NCBI GenBank assembly: GCA_900074885.1
Contig: FJUW01000046.1
Coordinates: forward strand, 231,408-295,407
Origin: Rhynchosporium graminicola
Lineage: Eukaryota > Ascomycota > Leotiomycetes > Helotiales > Ploettnerulaceae
Length of the DNA stretch: 64,000 nucleotides
Reading direction: 5' to 3'
In this document: one piece after another, positions 1 to 34,762 of the stretch
Layout: each line of letters begins with the position of its first letter
Numbering within the stretch: the stretch's first letter is position 1
The notes under the pieces: model-generated
What the model saw: the letters and a program-made list of their open reading frames with translations, nothing else
Database searches by the model: none
What the model was told of the DNA's origin: nothing
Made by a program: the position numbers and the translations under genes

Positions 1-27
1 TAGTTATCGAATAACTAACTTAGTAGG

Positions 28-352
28 TAAGATATTATATTAAGCTATCTCCGGCTATCTTGATCTTCTTATTTAATATAATAATATAAGACTTAAAGTA
101 GTATACGAGTAAAGATAGAATAAGTAGGAAGGCTAAGAGCGATCTTATATAGTCTATTACTAAGGAAATAAGAAGATAAGGAAAAGAAGAGGAGAGATAT
201 AGAGTACGAAGCCTCTTATATATATATGCCGGTGCTAGTCCGATACTATACCGCGTCAGATACTAGTTATACCGGGATGCCTATAATACCTATGAACTTG
301 GGCCCTAGTATCTATCCTTCTCCTTATGTGATGTTCAGGTAAGCTGTCGTTA
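28..352. repeat. Dispersed repeat X, copy 1 (RIP-degraded)
   Basis: This block recurs in two pieces at 571-676 and 3714-3952. Shared landmarks are the left end TAAGATATTATAT, the middle GCTAAGAGCGATCTTATATA, and the right part with TATATATATATG followed by a GAT/GGTACTAGTC segment and TTCAGGTA. It has no usable reading frame. CA and TG dinucleotides are scarce and TA is very frequent, the footprint of repeat-induced point mutation. Its class is unknown; it could be a solo LTR or a short non-autonomous element. It is an uninterrupted copy and so shows what the nested insertion at 677-3713 disrupted. Confidence 0.7.
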
Positions 353-570
353 TATTAATACTAGAGAAGATTATAATTGTCACGGGTAGAATGCAAAGTG
401 TATAGTATAGACGTTATATTATTTAATAGGAAGAATTAGCTAAAGAGCGGAGAATAATTCTTCCTTAATGGAAAAGAAGAGGATATAGTACTACTACTAC
501 TAGTGCCTTAGTATTAATAGTCAGCGAGATGCTTAGCGTCGAGTATTATCCTGGGTATAACCCGTAATAA

Positions 571-676
571 TAAGATATTATATCAGGCTATCTTTAGCTA
601 GCTTGATCTTCTTATTTAATATACTAATATAAAACTTAAGTTAATATATAAATAAAGATTAAATAAATAGAAAAGC
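571..676. repeat. Repeat X, copy 2, left fragment
   Basis: Matches 28-131 with scattered transitions. The similarity stops at GAAAAGC (676), where the LTR retroelement begins, and resumes at 3714 with GCTAAGAGCG. This is the left arm of a repeat copy split by a nested insertion. Confidence 0.7.
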
Positions 677-863
677 TAATATAAGGGTCAAGCCCTTAGG
701 TTATAGTGCTGGTACTACCAGCACGACTCGCTGACTAAGGCTCGGTTAAGCTTTAGTACTACGTACCTTTTCTTACGGCTTCCGGTTAGATTCTTACTCT
801 CTCCTTATCGAACTTGTTAAATACTATTATAAACCCTTATATATATATTATTTACTTATAATA
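677..863. repeat. 5' LTR of nested retroelement
   Basis: Aligns end to end with 3527-3713 without a length change. The differences inspected at its right end (TTTACTTATAATA against TTCACCCGTGACA) are all C-to-T or G-to-A, so this copy is the more heavily RIP-mutated one. It contains the hairpin GTGCTGGT-ACT-ACCAGCAC at about 707-725. Confidence 0.75.
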
Positions 864-1440
864 TTAAGTTCGATCAAATAACTAGCTCCTATAGCTTTTA
901 TATTAGAGTCCGAATGATCGTAGTCGAGGAACGAAGTCTTTGATAAATTATTAATAATAGGATAGTAAAGGTATAGGAGTAATAGAAGCCGAATCGATAT
1001 TAATAATACTTAGAGGAAAGCTCTAGGAACGCGAGGAAAGATAAAGATTCGATAGATTCTGCTATTCTTAAGCCGGAGTACGCCTGATTTATCCTTTAAA
1101 CTTATAAGATAAGAGCAGAAAGGTAGCTGAAAATTTTTTATAGGAGTAGAAAAGTAAGGAGTAGCTTAAGGTATAAACTACTCCCGAATAGATAAGGAAA
1201 GCGGCGATAATTAGTTAGTTACCGCTTACGAATAAGTAAACGATAGAAGCTATTCGATAGCTTAAGTAGAATATATACCTAAAAGATATAAGAAGCGATT
1301 ATCGCTAGCTAGTAGCTACTTAGGAACGCGCGGATAATAAGAACTTTTCGACGATATCTAAGATAAAGGAAAAAGATTTACTTTACCTTAAATAGAAAGG
1401 TAATAGCTACTTAATAATAGCTACTATAAAGATATCGGAA

Positions 1441-2175
1441 GACGATAGTATAAGTAAGCTATAACGAAGAACTACTCCGGAGGTAGCTATATATACGCTA
1501 GTCTCCGGACTCTGAAGAAGTACTCCGGTAAGCTAGAGACAGAAGATAGAAGACGCTTAAAGTAGATAATATAAAGAGGAGTTATAATAAAAGACTACTC
1601 CGGGGGTAAATAGCTATAAAAGCGCTAGTCTCCGGAGGTTTAAGGAAGGGCTCCGCGATATTAGAAGCGGAAGGAAACACTAGACATTAATAATAGAGCT
1701 ATAATAAGGAACTACTCTAGAGATAGCTACGTATACGTAAGTCTCCGGGGGCTTAAGGAAGAGCTATGTAAAGTTAGAGACAGAAAGAGGTATACTCTAC
1801 CTGAATAGAGAGGCAGCAGTTATATAATAGTAGTTACTATAAAGATACCGGAAGACGATAATATAAAAGGGGCTATAACGAAAGACTACCCCGGGGGTAG
1901 ATAGCTATATAAGCGCTAGCCTCCGGAAGCTTAAGGAAGAGCTCCGCGATATTAGAAGCGGAAGGAAACACTAGATATTAATAATAGGGCTATAATAAGG
2001 AACTACTCTAGAGATAGCTACGTATACGTAAGTCTCCGGGGGTTTAAGGAAGAGCTACGTAAAGTTAGAGATAGAAAGAGGTATACTCTACTTAAATAGG
2101 GAGGCGATAGTTACTAGAAGGCAGCTACTATAAAGATAGCGTAAGACTATAAGAAAGGAGGCTAAAGCTATATAG
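1441..2175. repeat. Internal tandem repeats of about 291 bp in the dead retroelement
   Basis: The segment starting AAGACTACTCCGGGGGTA at 1591 recurs at 1882 (AAGACTACCCCGGGGGTA) and the similarity runs on to about 2170. This gives two units of about 291 bp. Each contains a weaker half-unit repeat around CTAGTCTCCGG and AAGTCTCCGGGGG. A shorter, more diverged piece lies at about 1461-1560. A repetitive gag-like coding region or tandem non-coding repeats are both possible; decay prevents a choice. Confidence 0.6.
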
Positions 2176-3220
2176 CGATAGCAGAACTACTTAAGTCTTA
2201 AGTACAAGTCGATATTATCGGCTCGCTAGAGGAATAGATAGGAGAGCGATGACGACTAGCCGGAGCGCGAGCTATTATAGTTAAAGAAGAGAGAGCGAGC
2301 TAAGGAAGTCAGCTTATTAAAAAAAAAGATTAATTTTAGGATTTAATTTTAGATTTTCAAATTCTTAAGAAGATAATACTATAGAAAAGATACGTATTCC
2401 GCTATATCTCCTATAGAGTCCTTAGGAAGCTCAGCAGAGTCCTAAAACGAGAGCTAGAGATACTCCTCCGGTACTAAAAGAGAGTAAGCTAACGAAAAAC
2501 AAGCGGAGTCCGATAATTACTTATATTTAACCCTATTAGACGATAATAGTAATAATAGAAGTAGTAATCTCGGAGGCTAAAGGACTATAAAATATCAGTT
2601 ACTAATAAGGAATAAGCAGGGACCGAATAAACTTACGCGGAGAGAAGACTAGAGGATTAGAGGGGCTTAAGGGCTTTCTAGGCCTTTAAGACCTTAATAA
2701 GATTAGTATAAGTCTCGTTTCTAAATAGAGTATAAGGCGACGAAAAACAAGTAGAGTATAATACTTACTTATTAGTATTAGCGGAATAAGTCTAAATAGA
2801 GTAAGCGATATAGGAGATTTAAGGACTATTATATAAGCTATCTATTTTCGCGCGGAATCCGGGGAAAACTTATAAGTTCTTATAATTCTTCTTCTTATCC
2901 TTATAGCGGATATAGGATCAGGAGCGATTCGACTGAGTTCGTTAGGATTCCGTCTAAGAATAAGCGGAATGCGATACTTATAGCTTAGTCGATATAATTA
3001 GAGCCCGAGAGAGTATAAGCGATATAGTAAATCATAAGAGATATCTGATTCCGCTGGTTTTAGCGCGGATCCCGATAGTATAGTAAAGGGATTTTAATAT
3101 ATAATTCGCGAATTTTAATATTTTCTTTTAATAGAAGAAGAAGAGAGGGACTTACTTTACTATAATTATTATTATTATATAGAAGAAGAAAGAGAAGTCT
3201 AAAAAGGTAGAAGGTCTCTT

Positions 3221-3425
3221 CTTTTATAACGTCTTAGCCGGATCGAGCGATAATAGGAGCGGAGCGCTAGCCTAATACGGCAGGATAATAATAAAGGAAG
3301 CGAATGATAATAGGAGGAAGCATAATAATACTTTTATAAGGTCTTAGCCGGATCGAGCGATAATAGGAGCAGAGCGCTAGCCTAATACGGCGGGATCATA
3401 ATAAAGAAAGCGAACGACAATAGTA
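3221..3425. repeat. Two 110-bp tandem repeats upstream of the 3' LTR
   Basis: CTTTTATAACGTCTTAGCCGG (3221) and CTTTTATAAGGTCTTAGCCGG (3331) start two consecutive units. Both continue with GATCGAGCGATAATAGGAGC and CTAGCCTAATACGGC. The spacing is 110 bp. No coding potential was seen. Confidence 0.65.
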
Positions 3426-3526
3426 GAACGCCTAACGTTTAGTGATAGAACGCAGTCTTTAACTACAGGGGGTTCTACGACTATTTGCTATTAGTTTCCG
3501 CTAGAAAATAGGCGGGAGGAGGGGAG

Positions 3527-3713
3527 TAATATAAGGGTCAAGCTATTAGGTTATAGTGCTAGTACTACTAGCACGACTCGCTAACTAAGGCTCGGTTAAG
3601 CCTTAGTACTGCGTACCTTTTCTTGCGGCTTCCGGTTAGATTCTTACTCTCTCCTTATCGAACTTGTTGAATACTACTATGAACCCTCGTATATATATTA
3701 TTCACCCGTGACA
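3527..3713. repeat. 3' LTR of nested retroelement
   Basis: Second 187-bp LTR, directly after the polypurine tract. It is less RIP-mutated than the 5' LTR and keeps CACCCGTGACA at its end. Confidence 0.75.
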
Positions 3714-3952
3714 GCTAAGAGCGATCTTATATAATCTATTAACAAAAAAGCAAGAAGATGAAGGACAAAGAGAGAAGAAAAATAAGATATATGACCTTTT
3801 ATATATATATATATATATATATGCTGATACTAGTCTGTATCGGTACCGAGTCCGTCCCTAGCTATACCAGGGTGTCCGTCAACCTGGGTCTTAAGCCTAT
3901 ATCCTTTTACTCATATGACCTTCAGGTATATTATCGTCATAGTAATAACTAG
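3714..3952. repeat. Repeat X, copy 2, right fragment
   Basis: Continues repeat X after the nested retroelement and matches 132-352. It is visibly less TA-rich than copy 1. The 64-codon open frame here is an accident of the repeat. Confidence 0.7.
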
Positions 3953-4248
3953 GAGTCGATAGAACAGTATAGAATTATCTAGAATTTCTTAAAATTCTAA
4001 GATTATAAATTATAGAAGTGAATTCATTTTTGATTAATTAAATTAATTGGAATTGAATTAGATTAAATTAACTCTCAGATAGATTAAATTAAGTTAAAAT
4101 GAGTCGTGTTAATTTAATTTAATTTAATCAGTTCGCACGCTGAAGATTACCATGCATTTTGTATCGAACACACTAAAAATACCCGGCTACAACAATACAC
4201 AAAATTTCCAACAAACTATTATACAATCCAATTCGAAGCTTTCCAACT
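3953..4248. other. AT-rich intergenic spacer
   Basis: Low-complexity AATTAA/TTAATT runs (about 4030-4130) between the transposon block and the 3' end of the repeat-peptide gene. No gene was seen. Confidence 0.7.
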
Positions 4249-5266
4249 CTACTTCTTTCCACCCTTGGCTTTCTTGGCTGCAATTTGTCCAGCTGTATGG
4301 TGAGCCTCTCGGGATTCAATCCTGACCTCACGCTTTCCCCCCTTGGCCTTCTTGGCTGCTATTTGTCCTGCTGTGTGGTGTCTGGCGTTCAAAGCGGAGG
4401 CCATGGCGTCCTGGTAATCCTCAAGATCTTCCTGAGCCTCAAGAGCTTGATCAGTAGCCAAATCACGCTTGCCACCCTTGGCCTTCTTGGCAGCGATTTG
4501 TCCGGCAGTGTGGTGTCTAGCATTCAAAGCGGCAGCCATGGCATCTTGATAATCCTCAAGATCCTCCTGAGCCTCAAGAGCCTGGTCAGCAGCCAAATCG
4601 CGCTTACCACCCTTGGCTTTCTTAGCTGCGATCTGGCCCGCTGTATGGTGTCTTGCTACGAGTGCGGCGGCCTGGGCATCTAGGAAGTCTTCGAGATCTT
4701 CTTGAGCCTCGTCAGAGACAAGATCACGCTTTCCGCCCTTAGCTTTCTTAGCCTGCTAAGCCGTTAGAAATTGATACTATTATTGCAAGTCGATGACTTA
4801 CAGCAATTTGTCCTGCTGTATGGTGTCGTGCTACCAAAGCAGCGGCCTGAGCATCTAGGAAGTCTTCGAGATCCTCCTGAGCCTCATCGGAGACAAGATC
4901 TCTCTTCCCTCCCTTGGCCTTCTTGGCGGCGATTTGACCTGCTGTATGATGTCTTGCCTCGATCGAAACCTCACGCTTTCCACCCTTCGCCTTCTTGGCG
5001 GCGATCTGGCCTGCTGTGTGATGTCTTGTCTCAATCGCGTCACGCTTTCCACCTTTAGCTTTCTTGGCCTCGAGAGATGTTAGTACTTATCAGGCAGGGG
5101 ATAGATGAAAGCAACTTACGGCAATCTGACCGGCAGTGTGGTGTCTAGCCTCGATTGGAACAGACCGGGCTAAGTCTTGAGATTGAGAGGGAATGGCGTA
5201 GGCCGATGCCAATGGTGCAGACACCAAGAGGCCGAGGGCGAAAAGTTTTGAAACGGAAGTGTACAT
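4249..5266 (-). CDS. Secreted Kex2-processed repeat peptide precursor; candidate RiPP precursor
   Basis: Three exons: 5266-5120, 5068-4802 and 4752-4249; 305 residues. Introns of 51 and 49 bp have GTAAGT donors and TACTAAC or TTCTAAC branch sites, and both fall in phase 0 after QIA. Residues 1 to about 22 form a signal peptide (MYTSVSKLFALGLLVSAPLA). After it come eight copies of HHTAGQIA, each followed by AKKAKGGKR (AKKAKGGKK in the last). KR is the Kex2 protease site, so the secretory pathway should release about seven or eight related peptides. The spacers are short (6-9 residues, such as DAIETR or EVSIEAR) or long and acidic (25-28 residues, containing QEDLEDF or QEDLEDY). Architecture matches fungal KEPs and dikaritin precursors such as UstA. 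Two UstYa-like genes lie divergently upstream, which favours a RiPP. Against it, the invariant part has no Tyr; Tyr occurs only in the spacers of copies 6 and 7. It is not an alpha-pheromone precursor, since no W-C-x-G-Q-P-type repeat is present. Confidence 0.85.
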
Positions 5267-6494
5267 ATTGAAGGAATATAATATAAAGACTGGCCGGCAG
5301 TGAAATGAATGTATCGAGTAAGGATTGAAAGTAAGAAAGGCGAGTGGGCTGATGAGTGAGTTTGAGAAGGTAAGTGGCAGCTCACATCCTTTATACATCC
5401 TGTCACTTTGGTGGATAGTGGATACTGAACCCACAGAAGGCTGTCATTGTTCGGACGAAATCTGACAAGTATTCTGGGAATAGCTACAAGCTCAATCCGT
5501 TCATCGATTCCGAGACTGCTCTTGCTTGATGAGCCGCAGGGTGCAGTCCGAGGCTGCACTCGCGTGGTCTCGCACTGGGATCATCAGTCTGCCCCTACAG
5601 AAGCAACGTGGTAACCCAAGGAACATCATTGGCTGTCGGGACTAGTCACTGTCGACACCTAGGTCCGACGAGCTCTGTGAGTTGGAATTATGTCAAACAC
5701 TATGGCTGTCAGAACCTCCCCCTTCACCCCTATGAGGCTCCACATATTCTGACAGGGCAGGACTAGTCTGAAAGGAGTTTGGATGTGCAGTCTCAAGACC
5801 CTTTGAGGCATTAATGGCGCGATGCCATCCGAATGGACGCCTCAAACTGTAACTCGAGCCGCTGAACCTACACTCATCTCTTGGTGTTTGGCTTGGATAA
5901 GCTTGACCTCAACATGCATCTGGCATTTGTTCCTTCTGGGGTAATTTCAAGTGAATATGCTTTCTTGAGTATTTACACCAGTAAAAAAGAGAGCATGAGA
6001 ATTTACCAGGGCTACTATCGCATGGGCCAACTATCTTACAGTAAAGCAGTCAAAACCCGCTCCAGTGTAGTATTGTCTCTAGACACTGGGAAACTTCCTC
6101 TATCGAGATCCTCACTGCTCAGTTTGGGTCAAATCCGAGGCCTATTATTTCGACCTCGCTTGCAAGATCATTGTGGAGCTTCGTGGAACTGTTTCCAATT
6201 GGCGCTAGCGCGTAAAGTGGCTGAATCTGGCATATTCGTTTCAGAGATCCGATGGCGTTAATAGTGGACTTGTGCCATTTCTCATACAGCCATCAGACGA
6301 AGCGAGTCGCTTGAAATTGCACTCCTAATCTTCCACCCCTATGATGCAATTGTCGACCAGTTACTATCATAATTTCACGGATCTTGTCTTCTCATTCTTT
6401 CCTTCCTGCAATTGCTTCTGGTCAAGTACATTCGTTCGAAATAATTCAATTCTTTTTCAACTACCAGGAGTAGTTTTTGTTTGTTTGCGCAGTT
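5267..6494. promoter_or_regulatory. Shared divergent promoter region of precursor gene and first UstYa-like gene
   Basis: A 1.2-kb gap between two start codons facing away from each other. It contains a perfect inverted repeat GTGCAG-N7-CTGCAC (5541-5559), the type of site a dimeric regulator could bind. The open frame at 5881-6261 has no recognisable features. Co-regulation is inferred from layout alone. Confidence 0.45.
5541..5559. promoter_or_regulatory. Inverted repeat, possible regulator site
   Basis: GTGCAG and CTGCAC arms with a 7-base centre TCCGAGG, about 275 bp upstream of the precursor start codon. No specific factor can be assigned. Confidence 0.3.
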
Positions 6495-7465
6495 ATGTCT
6501 TTTACTAAATACGACAGAGTCGGTGAAGACGAGAAATTTCAAGAGCCCTTTCCTGGAGGACGAACGTCAACTTCGACTTCAGATTCCACATTGTTAGACG
6601 AAGAGGATGTCAGAGGATTTGCTCAACCAAGAGAAAAGTTTACAATAAAATGGATGTGGCTGGTTCACGCTGCGCTTCTCTCACTCTCGTTCACGATGTT
6701 TGTTGGCGCATTCTTCATACGGACGTCAACTTTAGAGCACGTGAAGAAGTTCTCTGCATATTGTGAGTACATCTGGATATATGGCCAGGAATGCGACTGA
6801 CCTTTGTAGCCCCTGCTGCGAGTGCTGTTGAATACCAAACAGTCAAGTTCAATGCGACCATGGGAGAGGGCTCGCCGTACGTCGGAAAAGGTCCGGAGGT
6901 CGATGAAGCATGGTTCAAGATTTCATATGATAGTAAGAAACCCTCGAATACATTCACGATTCAGATATTGATATATCTTAGTCGGCGACCAAGTCATCAC
7001 AGATGCAGAGCGAAAGATCATCGGAATGCCAGAGTCACATTTGAGAGCCACGAATCCAAAGACGGGAGTTGAAGGATACAGAGTCGGCTTAGAAGTCTTC
7101 CATCAGCTCCACTGCATCAACCTTCTCCGTCAAGTCACCTACAAAGACTATTATTCCCAACCTGAGCTCGGTTTCGGCAACTTCGTCGGTACTCAGGAAG
7201 ACCTACAAATGCATACCGGTAAGTTCTACGAATCAAGTTGCAGAAATCATACTGACAGAGGTCAGACCATTGCCTCGAAATTCTGAGAATGAATGCTGAG
7301 TGCAATGCGGATATCGGTGTCTTCACATTCTATATGGAGGAGGGAGACCCACTGCCATGGCCAGAGCTCAATTCCAACCACCAGTGCCGAAATTTTAATA
7401 AGGTTAAAGAATGGGCATTAGACAATTCCATTGGAAACATGGAGCGAGGAGACGTAAATCCATAG
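6495..7465 (+). CDS. UstYa-like (DUF3328) peptide-modifying oxidase, first copy
   Basis: Exons 6495-6762, 6810-6932, 6982-7218 and 7266-7465; 275 residues. The start is the first ATG that keeps the N-terminal cytosolic part (MSFTKYDRVGEDEK). Residues about 53-75 form one membrane helix, giving a type II membrane protein with a lumenal catalytic part. HQLHC (171-175) and DHCLEILR (210-217) are the two hallmark HxxHC/HC motifs of the UstYa family, thought to bind a metal. Known members (UstYa/Yb, PhomYc', AprY) oxidatively cyclise Kex2-released peptides in ustiloxin, phomopsin and asperipin biosynthesis. The neighbouring repeat precursor is the obvious candidate substrate. All motif residues are present and the splice sites are canonical, so it looks functional. 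DUF3328 proteins also occur outside RiPP clusters, so the substrate is inferred. Confidence 0.88.
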
Positions 7466-9485
7466 ACAGCCATGCCTAATTTAGTACCATAATCCTTTCG
7501 AGTTTTACACCCACTTGAATTCATACTTTGTACATGTGCCTACAATTGCCGTTTTCGTCTCAATCATCTGTGGGAACTTGCCCTTTAGGCGACTACTGCG
7601 GATTGTAGCCATTGGAAATCCAGCACAGAATCTTCTTTGCACTATCCTTGGAGGTCCGGGAATTCACTCTCGCCGTTGCTATTTCCAGGTTGTGGATCAT
7701 ACAGTGGATAGGACGTAGATCCACGATCGGGAGCCATTGAAGGACGCTAGGGATGGGGGTTGAGACCTGGAAGATGTTAGTGTCGGGAATCTGGGTACCT
7801 TTCGTACATATAGGCAGCTAGGGACGGCACGATGCTGCCGGTACTCGGGTAAGAAGATATACTTTTGCACTAATCGGCTTCTGTTATTGACAGATGGCTC
7901 GCTTCCCGACTCTGCCCATTTGTATTACTTCGTGACGGCCTTAGCGTACGTAAGTAAATGAAGTAGTCGCCGAGCAACCTCGATCAACCTACTCGTACGT
8001 TAAGATGAGTTTACCATTTCCAATTAGTCAATCAGCACAGGACTTGAACAAAAGAAACCGGAATTGACACATTCCATGAAACTGATCAAAGCGCCGCTGC
8101 CATCTGATCTTCCACCATCGGAACAATAATGCAATTCCACGCACAGATCTCCTGTCAAGTTCAACAAATCAAACGGGGTCCAATCACCGCTGCTTCCCCA
8201 CAGGGGCAGGTACCACTTCCCCTGTCTAAGCCTGGAACTTGGTGACTTGGCACATTTCTTGTCGCAGCTTGCCGCGCTGCCCACAAAATCCACCCACCTG
8301 CCAGATTGGCTGTAATCGACACTGGGATCTTATTTCCGTTCGAAGCAAGGCTTTGCTTGCCTGTTCGAATGGTCTGGACTTTGCTGAAACGGTATCGTTC
8401 GTGAGAAGGGATCAGTCATCTTTTCGCCGTCGCGTCGCCGTCGCGAGAAAGGAGTTGATGAAGCTGAGAAGGGGATAACTCTGAGATCTCGGTGAAGGAG
8501 TACGATGGCTTGTCTGCCGTGATATAACCCCTCGATACGTGTCACAGTCGCAGAAGCGGTAGATTGGCGACATAGATGAAGTACGCCGCGGACGTGGACT
8601 TCTTTCTGCGTACTTTGGGCAAGGCCATAACTTCGAAGGCGGATTGAAGTACAGCCTATACTATCCAAGACTGAGAATCGTGCAAATATCAGATTATCTT
8701 CCCACCACTATTGAACTCTATGGACGAAAAAATCCGACGCTATATCAGATTTCACTTACAATTTCTATACCAATTGCATAGACCTCGCTTAATGTGAGGC
8801 GGAATTGAAGCCTTTTGAATAGATCAAAGCGCCCGGACATTTATAACTCTTAGCTTGAAAGGCCGTACGCCGCGACATCATTGCAGCCAATCTCTCTGTG
8901 TTTTTACAGCTTTCAAATACCTCAGCTTAAGATTACATTTCAAATGAGACATCATTCTCGCTATTTCCAAGTACAGGAGCTATCTGAAAAGGTTCGATCT
9001 CCTCTCCCTCCAGGTTGAGACGAGCTCACCTGGCATCGATAGATAGATCGCCTGAAACCAGATGGCACTTGCTTGGGAGCAAGGCTACGCGACATATAGA
9101 TTCTCAAGTCAGGTATACTGGATGAAACTTGCTTGGGAGCAGGCCGACACGATGAAACTTGACGTTCGATTTCTTGTGGATCTGCCGCCGAGAGACTCCA
9201 CACTCGTGTCTGATATGCGCCTGGGGAGGAAGTTGTCTTCCGCCCCGAGCGTGTTGGAAGCCCGAGGTCTATCGTCTCAAAGTCCTCAGTTCATCTTGTG
9301 TTTTTGGGACGAATTTTGTTTTGATATCTCATTCTACAGTCCGGAACTGATTTTTTCATACTGCCAGAACTGGGTTCTCTGTTTCTCACGCTTTCTGGAA
9401 CTGGCTTCTGCTATTCTCTGTCTTTTTCTATTCTCTGTATTGCTTCAACATTTGAGTAAGATAATCATCAGGTTCTTTCTATACC
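7466..9485. other. Intergenic region between the two UstYa-like genes
   Basis: Two kilobases without a convincing gene. ACTTGCTTGGGAGCA occurs twice, 61 bp apart (about 9066 and 9127). Scattered open frames have no family signature. The last 300 bp probably hold the promoter of the second UstYa-like gene. Confidence 0.5.
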
Positions 9486-10577
9486 ATGTCACTTTTACAT
9501 CACGACAAGCAGAGCAGATATGCCAATATCGACAACGACGAAGTCATGTCCATTGATCTCGAGAACGATAACGACCACGATTCTGACACAACACTCGCAT
9601 CAGACGGCTTCCTCCACAGTAAAAAATCCACACATCGCATCTCGAAATATGAACGGGATTCTAGATTATCATCAGTATTGACTTGGACTAGATGGGCTGT
9701 CGTCATCTTCTTCCAGGGAATCATCATCATGTTATTATTACCTACCAATGGGCTTCTGAGGGACAGATGGGCAGGTCTGGGCACGGCGAGCGGGTGGACG
9801 CAGGAAAAAACCGAGACGGGCGGCGATATTAATGGATTATACGTTCCAAGTGAGCTCATGTGGCATGTCCAGAGTTGGTTCGTAGACTAATGGAAACAGC
9901 GAGTCATAAGTGGACTTTACTGACACCCGACGAGGAAATGTTCGTACCGAACATGACCTCCAACGATAATAGAATGGAAATCCGAAAGAATTGGGACATG
10001 TTGATGCCTCGTAAGTACTCTGATTAACCTTTGATCTTCATGCTGATGTTTGCAGTTGGAAGCGGAACCGTCTCGATCCCAGATTGGGAACAACACCCTA
10101 TGTTAGGAAAGCCAATCTCAGATGATCCTCTGCGCTTTGGACCAATCTTCGAAGCTTCCTGGACGCACGCCTTGCATTGTGTAATTGATTCACAAATCAC
10201 TTCCCTCCAGAGGTATCTTCACTAACATAAAATAGCTTTACTACACCGTAGACACCTATCACCAACTAGTCGTAAACAAGAGTTTCGGATTCGGCGGCGA
10301 GCGAAACGATTACCATGCAGGACATTGCTTCGAGTACCTCCGCAATCAAATCATGTGCATGTCAGATATGACGCTTGAAGGATCGGAGTCCGTTCTTGAT
10401 ACCACGGGTATGGGACAGGCTCATATGTGTCGGAATAGAGATGAGGCTGTCAAGTGGATCGAGGATAGGAGGGTGGACGATATTCAGAGCATTGTTGGAC
10501 CGGATCCACCGACAGATGGCCCGAGTGAGCTGGCTGAGGATATGTCGACGGATATGTCAGCCGTTGATTCGTCGTAG
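9486..10577 (+). CDS. UstYa-like (DUF3328) peptide-modifying oxidase, second copy
   Basis: Exons 9486-9849, 9900-10010, 10056-10180 and 10236-10577; 313 residues. A long charged cytosolic N-terminus rich in Asp and Asn precedes one membrane helix (about 66-86). HALHC (196-200) and HAGHCFEYLR (227-236) are the two family motifs; the third intron splits the coding sequence just after HALHC. The C-terminal tail is acidic and Ser/Met-rich (about 285-313) and is absent from the first copy. It diverges strongly from the 6495-7465 protein, so this is not a recent duplication. Many dikaritin clusters carry two or more UstY proteins that act together or in sequence. Same strand and 2.0 kb from the first copy, which suggests membership of the same cluster. 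Confidence 0.87.
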
Positions 10578-13518
10578 ATATTGTTATATAATTCAATTTT
10601 ACAAATTTTAGCATCACCTGGTTATGAGAGAACGCATCTAGCACACATCAGCCGATCGTCGGTAGGAAAGTCCAGTCACAGATCTCCGAAGGAGTTGAGG
10701 TGTAGAAAAAGATCTTCAAAGTCGCCCCACCTCTGGTGACCTCTGATGCTCAATACATCTCTGTCTTGACGTGTGCAAAAACGAATTAAGAAATCAACAA
10801 CATCCAGAAAGATACTGCTACCAGTATTGCACAGCGACAACGAGCGGGACTATCGATTTACTTGGGACAGCGCTTGCTGTTGCCATATACGTGTATAACT
10901 TATCCTTAGATTAGACATATTAAAGGATAATTTATTAAGTGATAACTTTCCCCTAGGTTCGCTTTATTGAATAATAACTTTTTAACTAATAACTCTTCCA
11001 TGGATTAGCTTTTTTCAAAGATAGATTATTAAAGGATAACGTATTCTTAGAGTAGCCTTATGAAAGAATAACTTGTTCAGTGATAAGGTATCCTTAGATA
11101 CGCCTCGTTAATCGACAATTTATTAAAGGATAACTAATCCTTAGATTAGCCTTATCAAGTAATAACTTATCAAAGGATAATTTATTCTTAGATTAGCAAT
11201 AATAAAGAGTAACTTATTAAGTAATAACGTATCCTTGGATTAGCTTTATTTAAGAATAACTTATTAAGTAATATGTTATCCCTAGATTCGCTTTATTAAA
11301 GGACAAGTTATCAAGTATTCAATTATAGTCTTCTAATATATTATTTCATCTCTTACGATCTGACTATAATATCGAAACGCACTTTCTTCCTAAAATAGAG
11401 AAAAGTAGTAGAGTTCAAGATATTATTCGAATTCGTTAGAAAAGAGTATCAACCTGGTGTGCTTGACTCCCCATGAGATCTTCCTCTGCTATCTACTTTC
11501 TAGTCCGCAGGTCTCGTAAATCTGGTATTATTTCGTTGGAAACAAAGGAATCTAATTCGCAACACAATAGGCAATATCATAGATCCATGGCCCATGCCCG
11601 GGCGAGACTTCTAGCTGTTGACTGCGCCGAAGTAAGTAAAAAGCGTATGCTATATCTCAATCAGATTGCGAGAAAATCTCAATACCTTCGCTGAACATAA
11701 AACTATATATAACTTCGAAGCTATAGGCGTTGAGCGTCAAGGTCATAACGGTAGACCTCAAATCAGCGATCTCCCAGATATGCCTCTCAACCTAACTTTT
11801 AAAAAGAGACACCCACCGGTCCAGGGATGTAAGTAAATCAGCTGCTGGGCGGACATGCTGGACTCATGCATTATATACCATCAACTACGATAAAAGCCTC
11901 TTTCCAAGAAGAACGCTGCTTGTAACGGAGGATCATGTCGCGGTGCCGGGGAAGATCACTATCACTCAACAAGGCAAAAACATCCAAACTATACCACAGC
12001 CCCTTTGCACATTTTGAAGTTGCAAGTAAGTGTACAGGATATGAGACCCTTCTATCTCCACGATCGAAATTCGATCCCGCTCTATCAAGTAGAACATGAA
12101 ACAGAAAGCAGCGATATGCAAATCACATCATAGAAAAAACCACCAACTATACCACCCATTCACCAGAACCGACCAATCACAGTTACAATCCTAACAACAT
12201 CATCATTCATCAGAATCCTTCACGAAGTTTCCCCAGGAACAGTGATAGCAATAATACATTTATCAAGCTTCAAACCCAGCAGGCCGCCTGCCTCCTAACC
12301 GTTACCAGCATAGTGAGAATACCTCCAGTGCTCCGAGTATTCTTACTACAAGTAACTCCGAGTGGGGTCAAGTACGCCGACGCCAATTCCGTACTCCTGG
12401 TCAATCAAGTTAAGCACTTCGATAGTGATGTCGATCTCGGACATGGAAATCAAGTCTGAGTATAACATGTCAAAGTACAGAAAAAAAAAAACCATATATC
12501 CAACAGACGTAACCGCACCAACCTATCTCCCTGCCTCCCCCTCCCCTGCCTCACAGACATAACCACCTCCAACCATCCTACCCAAAAGAAGAAGAAAAAA
12601 AGGAGAAGAAGAAGAAGAAGGAAAAAAAAAAAAAGGGAGCTCGGAACACAAAGCTTCCAGCTCGAAAGAAAAAAAAAAGTCTCGGCTTATTCTCTCACAA
12701 CTCGGTTCTTATCTCTTCCTTCTCCCTCTTACTCCAGCGGAAAAGAAAAGAAGAGCGTGCATACACACAAAACCACATGATCGAATCAACCTTGACCTTG
12801 GTGAGTTTTACACGCTCTCGACCCTACTCTGAGTGATATTTGTACTTTGAGTAACTTCCTTCCAGATTGAGTTGAGTCGGGTAGGTAGACTTTGAAAATA
12901 AGTACCACCTCCGACCACCTCACTTCACCTCACTTCACCTCACCTCGAGCCAACTCACTTACAACGCTATCCTCATCCTTATCCTTGACAGCACCGAGAT
13001 CTACTTACTTTGTCAAGAGAAGCTGCCAAACTGAAACGCGATAAATCAGTTGATGGTAAGCGAGTCGATATACATACATACATAATATGACAAAACAAAG
13101 TCCTTCCACCGAGGTAAGCGAGAAGAGATGATAGTGACTTGGGTAGGTTTTTACGAATAAACTTTTGGGCCTTTGATAGATGGAGGTAGGCGAGAGGCGT
13201 CTTCGCAATTGTCTCGACATGATAAAATGAAAAAAAGGCGTGTGATGAAATGCTAAAAGGAGAAGTGGAAATATCAGACTCAGATGGTAGGATGTTTGAT
13301 TGTCGTAGACTAGGAACTTTAAAAATGACTGAAAGAGCTTGGCTTCCAAGTATGTAGAGAAATGCAACGAATAACGCCGGGTATCGCCTGAACCCATTCC
13401 AACCCTCCCAAATCCCGACCAAAAATACCTACTTAAAGACTCTAAAAGAGTACCGTCTCACACCCCTCTCTCCAATTCTCCATTTCATTTCCCTCATCCC
13501 ACCTCAAGAATCCTCCGC
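10578..13518. other. Gene-poor region with minisatellite and purine tracts
   Basis: About 2.9 kb with no supportable gene. It holds the 48-bp minisatellite annotated separately and A/G-rich tracts around 12585-12640 (repeated AAG and poly-A). TCACTTCACCTCACTTCACC repeats lie near 12920-12950. Minus-strand open frames at 12979-13422 have no recognisable domain and may be 3' flank of the DUF3602 gene. Confidence 0.5.
10890..11320. repeat. AT-rich minisatellite, about nine units of 47-49 bp
   Basis: The motif TCCTTAGATTAGC or a variant (CCCTAGGTTCGC, TCCATGGATTAGC, TCCTTGGATTAGC, TCCCTAGATTCGC) recurs at about 10903, 10950, 10999, 11044, 11091, 11138, 11184, 11232 and 11278. Each is followed by TTTATTAAAGGATAACTTATTAAGTAATAAC-like sequence. 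Units are diverged, so the array is old. It lies just beyond the second UstYa-like gene. Confidence 0.7.
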
Positions 13519-26239: not shown

Positions 26240-26770
26240 ATGTCGCGTATGCAATTCCCCATCGACGTCCTGACCTCCCGCCTCAACCTCTCCGATCGCT
26301 TCGCCAGCGTACGCTCCCAATCTCTTGGCTCGCGCTTTGCAAACCTCAAGCCGGTCTCCGAGTTCTTCGACCTCAAGCGCCTCTCCAAACCTGCCAACTT
26401 CTCTGAAGTCCAATCACGCGTCAACTACAACCTAGGCTATTTCTCTAGTAACTATGCCGCCGTTTTTGCCATGCTCAGCATCTATTCGTTGTTGACAAAC
26501 AAGTGGCTACTCTTCGACTTGGTACTCATTATTGGGGGAATCTGGAGTATTGGCAAGCTAGGTGGAAATGATCTCAACATCGCTGGTCTACACGCAACCT
26601 CGTCACAGCTCTACACAGGTCTCCTAGTGATCGCCGTCCCGCTCACATTCTTCGCGGGACCTTTCTCCACTCTCCTCTGGCTCATTGGAGCCAGCGGTGT
26701 TACAATTCTGGGACACGCTTCATTTATGGACAAACCGATCGATGAGGCTTTTTCCGGGGAGGCGGTCTAG
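26240..26770 (+). CDS. PRA1 family (prenylated Rab acceptor, Yip3-like) protein
   Basis: Intron-less; 176 residues. PRA1/Yip3 proteins are small ER-Golgi membrane proteins that bind prenylated Rab GTPases and help place them on membranes. The family core is visible: RVNYNLGYFSSNYAAVF, two paired hydrophobic blocks (about 70-105 and 122-155), and the ending GHASFMDKPIDEAF. The length is normal. The stop codon at 26768-26770 is followed by the next gene's ATG after only 26 bases. Confidence 0.92.
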   Translation: MSRMQFPIDVLTSRLNLSDRFASVRSQSLGSRFANLKPVSEFFDLKRLSKPANFSEVQSRVNYNLGYFSSNYAAVFAMLSIYSLLTNKWLLFDLVLIIGGIWSIGKLGGNDLNIAGLHATSSQLYTGLLVIAVPLTFFAGPFSTLLWLIGASGVTILGHASFMDKPIDEAFSGEAV

Positions 26771-26796
26771 ATGGTCGGCCGCGATCTCCCGAATTT

Positions 26797-28266
26797 ATGC
26801 CCTCATGGGGAAGACCACCAGGGGCGAAGGGGAGCAGGAGGAGGAGGCAGTGGGAACGAGAAAACGAACAAGCTCAACGTGGAGGGTTTTGGAATAATAA
26901 TGGACGAGTGGAAGAGCTTGGTAGCGACGATACGGACACACAGGGCGTTGGGTTGCATTACGGCAAAAGACGATTTGTTAGCGATCCTTTGCAATATTTG
27001 ACGAAAGGCGCAGGGGGCGAGGCTTCTTCGAGTAGAGCGAGAGAGACTTATGCTTTTGGTGATTCGGATGATTCTGAGTCCGAGGATTCGGAAGTGTCCG
27101 AAGTTGATGGTACGGACACTCTACAGATTGCTCTGAGAGACAAGGAGGAGGCGTTAGTACAGTCTGCATTAGCAAGGATACGACGAGCCCAAGAGAAAGG
27201 GAAGAGGGAGGTGAAACTTAACAAAGATGAATTGGAAGCATTAGAGAACCGTCGAAAACGCATGCAGGCAGCAGCAACAACGAAAGCGAGGAAAGGGAGC
27301 GGTGGAAGTGGTGGTGGGAGCGATAGAGAAAAAAGACGAAGCGAGAGGATATCAATTCCTATAGCAGCAGCTACCGAATCCCTCAGTCGACCGAGCAGTA
27401 GACCAAGTAGTCGCCGAGACAAAGGGCGAGCTCCTCATCCAGCAGCAGCAGCCAACCCACCAGGAATGCTCGTCGCAGGGCCCGATGGCCTTGCTTATGC
27501 ACCTTTAGGAACCTACCCTTCAAACGCCATCGCAAACACACAGCAACAATCACAACCACAAGGACGTAATTCGCCCTTCCGCCCCCGCTCGAATACAGCA
27601 TCTTCTTCACAGCATCAATCACGCGGCAATCCACCTCCAATCCCATACTTCCAACATCAATCACTCTCCTCTGGCAACGCAAGGCATTTTAGCGATGGCA
27701 TGCGACCACCTTCTTCGTCGAGTAACATTTCGAGAAGACCGCTACCGGATGAAGCTGACTGGCGACCTGTGTCACGCAGGAGTTCCGTCGCAAGTTCGCA
27801 AGGATTTGTGGTTGATCCGTTTGACTATCAAGTTGCGAGTGATCCTTCACCGCCGATTTCGAGGGAATTTCAATATCAAAGCCAATCTCAGGAACAAGCA
27901 CAGACGAATCGGAGGATTGTGTCGAATCCTAGCGATGTTGCGTATTCCAGTGTGAGAAGGATTGTACCGCCTGGTTTTGCCTCCAAGTCACAATCCCAGT
28001 TCCAACGCGCCCCGATCACGAGTTCGAGTTCTGATCCGAGTCTCGCTACAAGACAAGGTCTCCGACCCCGATCTTCCCGTAATCGTGGTCCAGGGGCCTT
28101 CGATTCGGACTCCTTTGAGGAGCCGGAAGAGGACGAGGACGAGGATGAGAGCGATGAGTTGGGCAATGGAGTACAAGTGTTTGTGGATGAGAGTGACAAA
28201 AGTAGGGAGAAGGGGAAAGGTGTTGCTAAGAAACCAGTGGGGAAGAGGAAGGGGAAGGGTAAGTGA
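26797..28266 (+). CDS. Disordered Ser/Arg-rich protein of unknown function
   Basis: 489 residues from the first in-frame ATG. No family was recognised. The N-terminus (MPSWGRPPG, then SDDTDTQG and HYGKRRFVSDPLQYLTKG) looks conserved in style. An acidic Ser/Asp/Glu stretch (about 86-110) precedes a coiled-coil-like segment (LRDKEEALVQSALARIRRAQ, then KLNKDELEALENRRKRM). The remainder is low complexity, rich in Ser, Gln, Pro and Arg, with an acidic run (EEPEEDEDEDESDE) and a Lys-rich end (KRKGKGK) that could be a nuclear signal. The reading frame stays open upstream into the end of PRA1 (to about 26746, with SPEF before the Met), so an upstream exon overlapping PRA1 cannot be excluded. The strand and coding character are convincing; the start is uncertain. 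Confidence 0.7.
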   Translation: MPSWGRPPGAKGSRRRRQWERENEQAQRGGFWNNNGRVEELGSDDTDTQGVGLHYGKRRFVSDPLQYLTKGAGGEASSSRARETYAFGDSDDSESEDSEVSEVDGTDTLQIALRDKEEALVQSALARIRRAQEKGKREVKLNKDELEALENRRKRMQAAATTKARKGSGGSGGGSDREKRRSERISIPIAAATESLSRPSSRPSSRRDKGRAPHPAAAANPPGMLVAGPDGLAYAPLGTYPSNAIANTQQQSQPQGRNSPFRPRSNTASSSQHQSRGNPPPIPYFQHQSLSSGNARHFSDGMRPPSSSSNISRRPLPDEADWRPVSRRSSVASSQGFVVDPFDYQVASDPSPPISREFQYQSQSQEQAQTNRRIVSNPSDVAYSSVRRIVPPGFASKSQSQFQRAPITSSSSDPSLATRQGLRPRSSRNRGPGAFDSDSFEEPEEDEDEDESDELGNGVQVFVDESDKSREKGKGVAKKPVGKRKGKGK

Positions 28267-32438: not shown

Positions 32439-34762
32439 ATGATTGTCAAGCTGTTAGCCGTTCTGAGCTTGGCCGCTCACTGTAATGCTGCTCCGTCTCC
32501 AATTAAGTATGTCCTGCATGAGGAGAGAGCTGTTGAATCTCCAAACTGGGTGCGCGGTGCCAGACTTGAGAAAAGCGCCATTGTGCCAATTAGGATTGGT
32601 CTTACCCAGACTAATTTGGACTTGGGCTATGATTATCTCATGGACGTGTAAGTGTCTTAACAACCCTAAGATTTCCCCAGATCAGTCCCCACAGAGAAAC
32701 GATCGAACGTGAGCTGATCCGTTGAACAGCGCGAGCTCCGATAGTGAAAATTACGGCAAGCATTGGACTCCGGAACAGGTTCACAATGCTTTCGCTCCTA
32801 AGGATGAGACTATTGCCAGTGTTAAAGAATGGCTTACCGACTCTGGTATTCAAGACTCCCGTATCATGTTTTACGAGAACCGGGGCTGGATTTCAGTCGT
32901 TGACATGACTGTTGAAGAGCTCGAGTCACTGCTGCAAGCTGAATACCACGAGCACGAAAACAGCCAAACTTCGAAGGTTCGACTGGGCACACACAAGTAC
33001 GCATGCATCGATCCAAGACAGAAGGGGTTTGAAGTTTCTGTGCTGATAGGAATCGCAGGTACCACGTCCCGGAGCATCTGGCCTCTCATATAGACTACAT
33101 CACTCCCGGAATCAAGCTCTCGCCTGTTATCAAGCGCACTGTGGAAAAGAAGCTCAAGCGAAGCAACCGCTCCGTTCATGTGCCAGCTCTTGTGAGTACC
33201 CGAGCCAACAAAGGCAGTGAGAGTCTCGCTATCTCAGACGCCGCCGCAGCTCTTCCTCCTGCTCTTCAGGACTGCGCCTATGTAATGACCCCGTATTGTA
33301 TTCGAACTCTCTACAGTATACCAGAAACCCCTGAGCCAGTCGATGGCAACTCTCTCGGAGTCTTCGCGCAGGGCAGCTATTTCTTTAAAGCCGATCTCAA
33401 CCAGTACTATGCAAAATACGCAACATATGTGCCACAAAATACCTTCCCTATCAACGCGTCCATCGACGGCGCATCTTACTCTGTGCCAGCTGCAAGCGAG
33501 TCGAACGGAGCAGAAGCAATTCTCGACATTCAGATAGCGTAAGTGTATCTGTGGGTGCCAACAAATGACATACCTACCTCAGTGAACTTTCGCTAACTCG
33601 GTCAGAACCTCGCTTGTCTATCCCCAAACTGTCACTCTCTACCAGGTCGATGACGACATATACGGGCCAGGTCAAGTCGCGGTTTTATTCAACACCTTCT
33701 TGGATGCCCTCGATGGATCATACTGCAGCTATAGCTCAGATGGCCATACTGGTGACGATCCAAACATCGATCCAGTCTACCCGCACAACGTTACCGGTGG
33801 CTACCAGGGACAAAGACAGTGTGGTGTTTACAAGCCGGTGAGTGATGATAAGCGAAAGAATACTGACAATACTGACATGTCTCTAGACCAAGGTTATTTC
33901 TATATCTTATGGTCAGGCCGAGGCAGATCTCCCCGCACCGTAGTACGTATTGAAAAAGCTTAAACCAGATTCGAATGGTCAGTCGCTGACTCACATTGCC
34001 TACAGTACCCGTCGCCAGTGTAATGAGTTCATGAAGCTCGGGCTGCAGGGAGTTTCGATTCTCATCGCTTCTGGAGATAACGGTGTCGCCACATTTCCAG
34101 AAGATGGACCTACATGTCTTGGTCCTCAGCAGACCATCTTCAATCCTGGATACCCCAACGGATGTCCCTACGTCACCGTAGTCGGAGCAACCCAACTCCC
34201 ATCCGACGGCACCGTCTATGATGCCGAAGTTGTCATGCAAGCTGACTATGAAGGACGCTTACCCGATACCTCTTCGGCAGGAGGTTTCTCCAACTACTTC
34301 TCTCGCCCAAGATATCAAGACGGACATGTGCAAGCATACTTCCACCGCGCCAATATCACTTACCCATACTACTCGGAGCTCAACTTCAACGCTAACACTA
34401 CAACCGGTATCTACAACAGAATCGGTAGGGCATACCCAGATGTATCTGCCATCGGTTCAAACTTCCCTCTGTACCTCAATGGCACGCTGGGGAACAGTTA
34501 CGGATCTTCACTGTCTTCTCCTGTGTTTGCTGCTGTGTTGACTCTCTTGAACCAAGAGCGTGCTGCGGCTGGAAAGGGCACGATTGGTTTCGTAAACCCG
34601 GTACTGTACAAACATTCCGATGTTTTGAACGATATTGTCGTTGGAAGAAACCCTGGATGTGGGACTCAAGGCTTCAAGGCTGTTCATGGTTGGGATGCTG
34701 CCACTGGTTTGGGCACGCCGAACTATCCTAAGATGAAGGCTCTGTTCATGTCGCTGCCATAG
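32439..34762 (+). CDS. Secreted sedolisin (S53) tripeptidyl-peptidase-like protease
   Basis: Six exons: 32439-32647, 32730-32996, 33059-33538, 33606-33837, 33887-33942 and 34006-34762; 666 residues. Sedolisins are acid serine proteases; fungal ones are secreted tripeptidyl peptidases. Residues 1-18 are a signal peptide (MIVKLLAVLSLAAHCNA). The pro-domain shows YGKHWTPEQV and WLTDSGI. Catalytic positions are visible: Glu and Asp in NGAEAILDIQ (about 311 and 315), the oxyanion Asp in SGDNG (about 439), and Ser in YGSSLSSPVFA (about 583), where GSS replaces the usual GTS. The C-terminal calcium-site region ends GWDAATGLGTPNY. An apparent TAG at 33941-33943 is removed by using donor GTACGT at 33943, which yields the family junction LPAPYTRRQCNEFMKLGLQG. 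The gene looks intact. It is closest in style to the SED-type sedolisins. Confidence 0.9.

What the first reader, a model, noticed from the sequence alone, without database searches (positions are those of the whole stretch)
4249..10577. Candidate dikaritin-type RiPP cluster: Kex2 repeat precursor plus two UstYa-like oxidases
Seen: a secreted precursor with eight copies of HHTAGQIA and Kex2 KR sites faces a UstYa-like gene (HQLHC, DHC motifs) across a 1.2-kb shared promoter region, and a second UstYa-like gene (HALHC, GHC) follows. Known: this pairing defines ustiloxin, phomopsin, asperipin and victorin clusters. Inference: these three genes make an undescribed cyclic peptide family. No P450, methyltransferase, tyrosinase, protease or transporter gene is visible in the 30 kb to the right, so the set is either minimal or continues to the left.
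Basis: partly seen in the sequence, partly recalled or inferred. Interest (0 to 1): 0.88.

Follow-up and report, generated by a model that had tools for sequence, protein, structure and literature searches.

The report
Fungal repeat-peptide precursor with two oxidases
A plant-pathogenic fungus carries a small three-gene set that probably makes an enzyme-oxidised peptide cut from an eight-copy precursor; it seems to belong to a type already listed in a 2020 survey, but its product is unknown and its core lacks tyrosine, the residue through which several known relatives are joined.

Summary
The window is from a Rhynchosporium genome. A gene found at one locus (4249-5266, minus) encodes a 305-aa protein with a secretion-signal-like start and eight identical HHTAGQIAAKKAKGG copies, seven followed by KR. 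It is divergent (1,228 bp) from UstYa1 (6495-7465); UstYa2 follows (9486-10577). Both match Pfam UstYa and have two HxxHC motifs. Among the eight cores 14 of 48 bases vary, all third codon positions. The 54 kb to the left are RIP-like repeats without a long frame, so the set looks minimal. Relatives (HHTEAQIAAK repeats) occur in other Leotiomycetes, Trichoderma, Talaromyces and a lichen fungus, where precursor and both UstYa genes have consecutive tags. This fits KEP type G-3 of a 2020 survey (di-histidine, 64 proteins, 20 genera including Rhynchosporium, 57 of 64 with DUF3328 neighbours); I found no product in the papers searched. New here: in 134 of 134 copies the residue before HH is P, A or R, which fits Kex2 plus Ste13-like trimming to an N-terminal His-His; and no core copy has Tyr or Trp, so a UstYa cross-link there would need other chemistry. 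Modification, cyclisation and expression were not testable; linkage fails or is unclear in Lachnellula, Xylogone and Scytalidium.

The parts
4249..5266 (-). Precursor gene: KEX2-processed repeat protein, 305 aa, exons 5266-5120, 5068-4802, 4752-4249; signal-peptide-like N-terminus, eight HHTAGQIAAKKAKGG cores, seven followed by KR
   Evidence: Splice model with introns 5119-5069 and 4801-4753; 8 DNA matches, 0 expected; 24 relatives at E<=1e-3; the only locus matched in the genome
5267..6494 (.). Divergent intergenic region (1,228 bp) between the precursor and UstYa1, presumed shared promoter
   Evidence: Gene models; promoter function not tested
6495..7465 (+). UstYa1 (DUF3328/PF11807) oxidase gene, 275 aa, exons 6495-6762, 6810-6932, 6982-7218, 7266-7465; hydrophobic segment about residues 57-75; HQLHC at 171 and HTDHC at 208
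   Evidence: 182.8 bits; 97% identical to Rhynchosporium agropyri RAG0_16749
9486..10577 (+). UstYa2 (DUF3328/PF11807) oxidase gene, 313 aa, exons 9486-9849, 9900-10010, 10056-10180, 10236-10577; hydrophobic segment about residues 72-90; HALHC at 196 and HAGHC at 227
   Evidence: 60.9 bits; identical over 313 aa to Rhynchosporium graminicola WAI453_007338
1..4000 (.). Left boundary: A+T-rich, RIP-like repeat DNA, continuing at least 50 kb further left
   Evidence: GC 0.32-0.37 in the window part; TpA/ApT 1.51-1.70 and (CpA+TpG)/(ApC+GpT) 0.20-0.35 over the 54 kb

Best explanation
A minimal fungal RiPP locus of the di-histidine KEP type (type G-3 of PMC7329392). The precursor enters the secretory pathway (inferred). 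Kex2 cuts after KR (and, inferred, after the single R before HH), carboxypeptidase removes the basic tail, and in relatives a Ste13/DPP-like enzyme removes EA, EP or DP, so that units yield a peptide starting His-His-Thr (HHTAGQIAAKKAKGG or a shorter form). Two membrane-anchored, lumen-facing UstYa proteins, by analogy with the binuclear copper enzyme CctR, oxidise this core (hydroxylation, desaturation or a cross-link) at histidine or at non-aromatic residues. The modified peptide is secreted. Shown: gene structures, repeats, constraint on the core, oxidase motifs, co-location in some other genomes. Inferred: processing, oxidation, secretion, biological role.
For: Eight identical cores with 14 of 48 bases varying, all third codon positions; 224 synonymous and 0 non-synonymous codon differences in 448 pairwise comparisons. 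In 134 of 134 core copies from 25 proteins the -1 residue is P (59), A (38) or R (37), these three being 30% of residues outside the cores. Varicellaria: UstYa2, UstYa1 and precursor are MMC14_001555/1556/1557; Ciborinia: precursor NHQ30_010197 beside UstYa1 NHQ30_010198; precursor and UstYa2 on contigs of equal length in Trichoderma gracile, T. chlorosporum, Talaromyces stipitatus and Xylogone. UstYa1 and UstYa2 share a contig length in 11 cases. The survey gives 57 of 64 type G-3 KEPs DUF3328 within 15 genes. Double HxxHC is the copper site in CctR (PMC12435403). One proprotein-convertase P-domain match and two DPPIV_N loci exist in the genome.
Against: No expression, proteomic or metabolite data. 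No Tyr in the core, unlike ustiloxin, phomopsin and asperipin. No tyrosinase match on this contig; no P450, methyltransferase or MFS domain in the 40 frames scanned. The type G-3 sequence is not in the text I could read, so the match rests on di-His, genera (6 of the 9 named hit genera are on the list) and neighbours. Precursor and UstYa2 lie on different draft contigs in Lachnellula hyalina, precursor and UstYa1 on different contigs in Xylogone and Scytalidium. No UstYa1 hit bears the name Trichoderma or Talaromyces (120 of 139 hits listed). No named Rhynchosporium precursor came up. The survey found HH almost as common in KEPs without DUF3328 neighbours.
Confidence: 0.7

Rival explanations
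1. The precursor yields linear, unmodified secreted peptides (pheromone-like or surface peptides); the UstYa genes beside it act on something else.
For: The window's core has no Tyr, Phe or Trp. The survey found HH about as common in KEPs with and without DUF3328 neighbours, 5.7% and 3.9%. R-EA/EP/DP before the core resembles alpha-factor maturation (recalled). Linkage to a UstYa gene is not seen in Lachnellula hyalina or, for UstYa1, in Xylogone and Scytalidium.
Against: Precursor and one or both UstYa genes share a contig in 6 of 24 precursor hits, from four classes (classes, the rest recalled); 57 of 64 type G-3 KEPs have DUF3328 neighbours against 22% of all KEPs. Only 1 of 17 other UstYa stretches in this genome (two of them overlapping) shows a KEP-like frame by my scan.
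Confidence: 0.18
2. The UstYa enzymes act on the acidic spacer (EDLEDYQDAM / EDLEDFLDAQ) or, in relatives, on the EFGxW-bearing segment, and the HHT unit is only a recognition sequence.
For: Four of the seven spacers here carry Y or F; 16 of 24 relatives carry EFGxW segments.
Against: Three Botrytis-group precursors (P0001, P0004, P0005) have no Tyr, Phe or Trp after residue 22, and 8 of 24 relatives lack EFGxW. Spacers differ in length (6 to 28 residues) and sequence while the core does not. Botrytis has UstYa1 and UstYa2 relatives, though their adjacency to the precursor there was not shown.
Confidence: 0.09
3. A decaying or unused locus at the edge of a repeat desert.
For: It abuts RIP-like DNA: GC rises only in the 1-kb bin that starts at 4000.
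Against: The three frames are intact, the cores show no amino-acid change, RIP indices inside the genes are normal, and UstYa2 is identical to the R. graminicola protein.
Confidence: 0.03

Closest known systems
KEP type G-3 (#6) of PMC7329392 (2020; section 6 part 1, section 7 and passages read)
   Same: Di-histidine motif; Ascomycota; genus list includes Rhynchosporium and 6 of the 9 genera named among the precursor hits (Botryotinia, Botrytis, Lachnellula, Trichoderma, Talaromyces, Scytalidium); DUF3328 neighbours in 57 of 64
   Different: Positions 4-5 of the core are A-G in all 8 copies here; of the 126 other copies 119 have E-A, 5 A-A (Lachnellula), 1 K-A and 1 E-S; no EFGxW segment
Ustiloxin, phomopsin and asperipin-2a clusters (dikaritins)
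   Same: Secreted multi-core Kex2 precursor next to UstYa/DUF3328 genes with double HxxHC
   Different: No Tyr in the core; no tyrosinase on the contig and no methyltransferase, P450 or S41 peptidase match in the frames scanned; product unknown
Victorin (recalled; named as a dikaritin in passages of PMC9632046)
   Same: UstYa-type enzymes on a precursor whose core lacks Tyr (recalled)
   Different: Different core sequence, with Phe (recalled)
CctR of cyclochlorotine (PMC12435403, abstract and part 1 of 3 read)
   Same: HxxHC(x)nHxxHC and one N-terminal hydrophobic segment
   Different: CctR acts on a non-ribosomal cyclic peptide

Membership tests
Dikaritin-type RiPP locus (DUF3328 as class-defining enzyme, as reported in passages of PMC12048977) | DUF3328/UstYa gene(s) with two HxxHC motifs beside the precursor gene | tested here: met
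Dikaritin-type RiPP locus (DUF3328 as class-defining enzyme, as reported in passages of PMC12048977) | Signal peptide and multiple repeated cores bounded by Kex2 sites | tested here: met
   Eight cores, seven followed by KR; the signal peptide was judged by eye, no predictor was run
Dikaritin-type RiPP locus (DUF3328 as class-defining enzyme, as reported in passages of PMC12048977) | Product is an oxidatively modified or cross-linked peptide | not testable with these tools
   Needs LC-MS/NMR
Ustiloxin/phomopsin/asperipin subgroup | Tyr in the core, joined through an ether bond | tested here: not met
   0 of 134 core copies (8 here, 126 in relatives) have Y in the first 15 residues
Ustiloxin/phomopsin subgroup | Tyrosinase gene in the cluster | tested here: not met
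   22 tyrosinase matches listed in the genome, none on contig C66
KEP type G-3 (PMC7329392) | Di-His repeat, DUF3328 neighbours, matching genera | tested here: met
   genus Rhynchosporium is on the published list
KEP type G-3 (PMC7329392) | Sequence match to the type's own profile or member accessions | not testable with these tools
   The profile is in Fig. 5 and the members in a supplementary table; figures are not held and supplement look-ups are capped at 0

The most novel reading that the evidence does not exclude
The two UstYa copper oxidases cross-link or hydroxylate a core that has no aromatic residue other than histidine, giving a His-, Thr-, Gln-, Ile- or Lys-centred linkage that I do not know from dikaritins; the mature peptide has an N-terminal His-His that may itself bind copper, and its near-invariance in precursors from four Pezizomycotina classes points to a shared physiological or signalling role and not to a lineage-specific toxin.
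Probability: 0.35. Interest if true: 0.78.

Novelty: new member of a known kind. Interest (0 to 1): 0.5.

Why it matters
[quoted passage not shown] A widespread precursor type whose core lacks Tyr and Trp (and Phe, save two copies that run into intron-like sequence), found with dedicated UstYa genes in several classes of Pezizomycotina, would show what else these enzymes can do on peptides. The predicted N-terminus (His-His) and listed masses make a targeted LC-MS search straightforward.

Tried and rejected
Continuation to the left: 50 kb fetched (L009-L013); only A+T-rich RIP-like DNA, with frames that look retroelement-like by eye. Extra genes: 10 frames of 72-151 aa between 7.5 and 18.2 kb gave no Pfam match at E 0.1; small or multi-exon unknown proteins cannot be excluded. 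On the right, 32 of the 64 frames of 130 aa or more were scanned. Pfam on 5 precursors gave nothing over cut-off; the precomputed accession PF28547.1 for P0015 is not in the library here. A second copy of the precursor in the genome: none found. RNA families: none at gathering score. Solved structures by sequence: 0 matches for each UstYa protein at E 1.

My first count of cores used a pattern that fixed HHT..Q[IV] and so made those positions invariant by construction; one search used a 6-of-10 match: 134 copies, H1, H2 and T3 in 134, Q6 in 133. Six of these copies score 8 or less, five of them in the JGI predictions P0007 and P0008, which appear to run into unspliced introns. One search scored only 7996 candidates of 0.55-1.75 times the query length, which may have hidden relatives, including an annotated Rhynchosporium precursor.

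Contig matching used hand-typed contig lengths for 20 of 24 precursor hits, 45 of the 120 listed UstYa1 hits and 47 of 76 UstYa2 hits; equal length stands in for same contig, and each row is a 90% cluster with one contig shown, so a missing match says little. The KEP scan sees only unspliced frames with three or more copies of an exact 4-mer and three basic sites; it can miss KEPs with introns, and it also flagged one unrelated frame in the window (26746-28263). Against the draft of this report I lowered the best explanation from 0.72 to 0.70 because of the Lachnellula contigs.

Structure prediction: UstYa1 was accepted once but not finished after 11 collecting calls; UstYa2 was never accepted. 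No model was obtained.
Full report
What is there. The window is G000:C66:231408-295407 of a 55.3-Mb, 121-contig genome. The spliced UstYa2 is identical over 313 aa to Rhynchosporium graminicola WAI453_007338 and UstYa1 differs from R. agropyri RAG0_16749 at 8 of 275 residues, so the organism is very likely a Rhynchosporium (Leotiomycetes, Helotiales, Ploettnerulaceae). The precursor gene runs on the minus strand from 5266 to 4249 with two short introns and gives 305 aa. It holds eight HHTAGQIA copies, 0 expected by chance, and is the only locus in the genome that matched it. UstYa1 and UstYa2 were spliced by hand to 275 and 313 aa; both pass Pfam's UstYa cut-off and both carry two HxxHC motifs and a strongly hydrophobic segment. 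They are 28% identical over 101 residues, so they are not a recent duplicate pair.

The core is under constraint. The 16 residues HHTAGQIAAKKAKGGK are the same in 8 of 8 copies, yet 14 of the 48 bases vary, all at third codon positions: 224 synonymous and 0 non-synonymous codon differences in 448 pairwise codon comparisons. The seven spacers between KR and the next HH are 6 to 28 residues long. Two long-spacer pairs were also compared: 9 synonymous and 0 non-synonymous, and 9 and 2, so the spacers within a pair are also kept; what sets the core apart is that it is the same across all eight units.

Boundaries. The 54 kb to the left are A+T-rich with RIP-like indices (TpA/ApT 1.51-1.70; (CpA+TpG)/(ApC+GpT) 0.20-0.35), against 0.54-0.72 and 1.20-1.70 in the three genes and the spaces between them; the longest stop-free frame in the 50 kb fetched is 182 aa. 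To the right, 30 frames scanned give EXS, Pex2/12, DnaJ, PRA1, a weak sedolisin-like match, LCAT, Bles03, TPR, RMI1, Exo84 and, at 62980-63780, a fungal transcription-factor domain; 10 more frames near the set give none. None of the 22 tyrosinase matches listed for the genome lies on this contig. The set looks complete with three genes, as far as Pfam on single frames can tell.

Relatives. A protein search with the precursor gave 24 hits: Botryotinia/Botrytis, Ciborinia, Lachnellula, Trichoderma, Talaromyces, Xylogone, Scytalidium, the lichen fungus Varicellaria and unnamed metagenome proteins. All 24 carry copies of HHTEAQIAAK or something close. In 16 of 24 there are also EFGxW-bearing segments (often DEFGPWD...DEFGSWVDKR); 8 of 24 (P0001-P0005, P0007, P0008, P0012: Botrytis group, Lachnellula, Ciborinia, two JGI proteins) and this window lack them. 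With a 6-of-10 match, 134 copies were found in the 25 proteins: H1, H2 and T3 in 134, Q6 in 133, I7 in 132, K10 in 128. Positions 4-5 are E-A in 119, A-G only in the 8 copies here.

Where the peptide starts. In 134 of 134 copies the residue before HH is P (59), A (38) or R (37); these three make up 30% of residues outside the cores. Of the 97 P/A cases, 84 are R-EP, R-EA, R-DP or R-AP and 85 have R just before the dipeptide; the other 12 have A or P there. This is what Kex2-type cleavage after a basic residue followed by removal of X-Pro/X-Ala dipeptides by a Ste13/DPP-IV-like enzyme would need, as in yeast alpha-factor (recalled). In the window 7 of 8 copies have R directly before HH and one has R-EA. 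The genome has one proprotein-convertase P-domain match and two DPPIV_N loci. The likely mature N-terminus is therefore His-His-Thr. This is inference, not shown.

Co-location elsewhere. No fungal genome collection was open to me, so I used locus tags and contig lengths in the hit tables. Varicellaria rhodocarpa: MMC14_001555 (UstYa2), 1556 (UstYa1), 1557 (precursor). Ciborinia camelliae: NHQ30_010197 (precursor), 010198 (UstYa1). Precursor and UstYa2 with equal contig length: Trichoderma gracile, T. chlorosporum (V8C35DRAFT_310658 and 310655), Talaromyces stipitatus, Xylogone. In all, 6 of 24 precursor hits share a contig length with a typed UstYa1 or UstYa2 hit, and UstYa1 and UstYa2 share one in 11 cases, with tags one apart in Venustampulla, Chlorociboria, Hymenoscyphus, Fonsecaea monophora, Bathelium and Varicellaria. 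Against: in Lachnellula hyalina the precursor (LHYA1_G007466, partial) and the UstYa2 relative (LHYA1_G004311) are on different draft contigs; UstYa1 is on another contig than the precursor in Xylogone and in Scytalidium; and no UstYa1 hit bears the name Trichoderma or Talaromyces (120 of 139 hits listed). UstYa2 looks like the more constant partner: 11 of the 20 published G-3 genera are named in its hit list and none of the 18 G-8 genera, whereas named UstYa1 hits also include Pseudogymnoascus, Colletotrichum, Coniochaeta and Thermothielavioides, which are on the list of G-8, the other di-histidine type (compared by eye; names stand for clusters).

Control. Of 17 other 10-kb stretches around UstYa matches in this genome (two overlap), 1 holds a KEP-like open frame. 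The scan misses spliced precursors and flagged one unrelated frame in the window, so it is a rough control.

History. A tree of 28 UstYa2 proteins splits at its midpoint into 12 Leotiomycete plus 2 Dothideomycete rows (99/95) and a branch with Eurotiomycetes, Lecanoromycetes, Trichoderma, Xylogone and two more Dothideomycetes (99/95); Trichoderma groups with Xylogone (100/97), which hints at transfer between classes (8 of 25 inner branches are weak; some class labels are recalled). Species whose precursor has EFGxW segments (two Trichoderma, Talaromyces stipitatus, Xylogone, Varicellaria) fall on the second side; Rhynchosporium, Botrytis and Lachnellula, whose precursors lack them, on the first.

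Comparison with print. PMC7329392 (2020; section 6 part 1, section 7 and passages read; its author, Umemura, is recalled) surveyed 7878 KEPs from 1461 strains. Type G-3 has 64 members in 20 genera, Rhynchosporium among them, a di-histidine motif and DUF3328 genes within 15 genes in 57 of 64. Its sequence is in a figure and a supplement that I could not see, so the match rests on motif, genera (6 of the 9 named here are listed) and neighbours; I put it near 0.93. 'HHTAGQ' occurs in one paper on suprabasin peptides, 'HHTEAQ' in none and 'DEFGSW' in one on human cell-line peptides (listings only). Searches for UstYa with histidine, Rhynchosporium with RiPP terms, UstY/dikaritins since 2021, and di-histidine with DUF3328 listed no paper whose title or abstract start names a product for this type; I read passages of PMC7099791, PMC6339444, PMC12048977, PMC6941272 and PMC9632046. 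Only open-licence papers are held.

Mechanism. CctR, a DUF3328 enzyme, is a membrane-associated homodimer with a binuclear copper site built from HxxHC(x)nHxxHC, and needs O2 and electrons (PMC12435403, abstract and part 1 of 3). UstYa1 and UstYa2 have the same motif pair: of its 12 His and Cys, 8 are invariant and 4 are kept in 29 of 30 rows of the two 30-member alignments. The best reading is that they oxidise the HHT core in the secretory pathway. None of 134 core copies has Tyr or Trp in the first 15 residues, and Phe occurs only in one copy each of P0007 and P0008, which run into intron-like sequence. Three Botrytis-group precursors have no Tyr, Phe or Trp after residue 22. The Tyr-ether chemistry of ustiloxin, phomopsin and asperipin can therefore not apply to this core. 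Which residue is modified, and whether a ring forms, is open.

Verdict. An intact, minimal, dikaritin-like RiPP locus; very probably a member of a catalogued but chemically unknown type; ordinary as a gene set, of medium interest because of the Tyr-free, histidine-led core.

Noticed in passing
L024:4356-5468 (+), G000:C62:1124355-1125467: A second KEP-like precursor in the same genome with about 20 DSDAATAYGADKR repeats and a signal-like N-terminus, between UstYa matches at C62:1122765 and C62:1126881; this one has a Tyr in the repeat.
   Followed up: no
G000:C18:409189-414100 (L021): Tyrosinase matches (409189-410020) about 2.4 kb from UstYa matches (412409-414100), gene kinds reported together in ustiloxin and phomopsin clusters; several of the matched frames contain stops.
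   Followed up: no
window 10895-11316: A+T-rich tandem array of about nine 47-bp units with RIP-like composition, 0.3 kb beyond UstYa2.
   Followed up: partly
window 33033-34762: Sedolisin-like peptidase gene by weak Pfam matches, 22 kb right of the set; no sign that it belongs.
   Followed up: no
P0006, P0009-P0011, P0013-P0024: 16 of 24 related precursors carry EFGxW-bearing segments between the HHT cores, so one precursor may release two kinds of peptide; absent from the Botrytis group, Lachnellula and Rhynchosporium.
   Followed up: partly
P0071-P0133 (some UstYa1 hits): UstYa1-like proteins occur in genera listed for KEP type G-8, the other di-histidine type, so this subfamily may be tied to di-His cores in general (by eye).
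   Followed up: no
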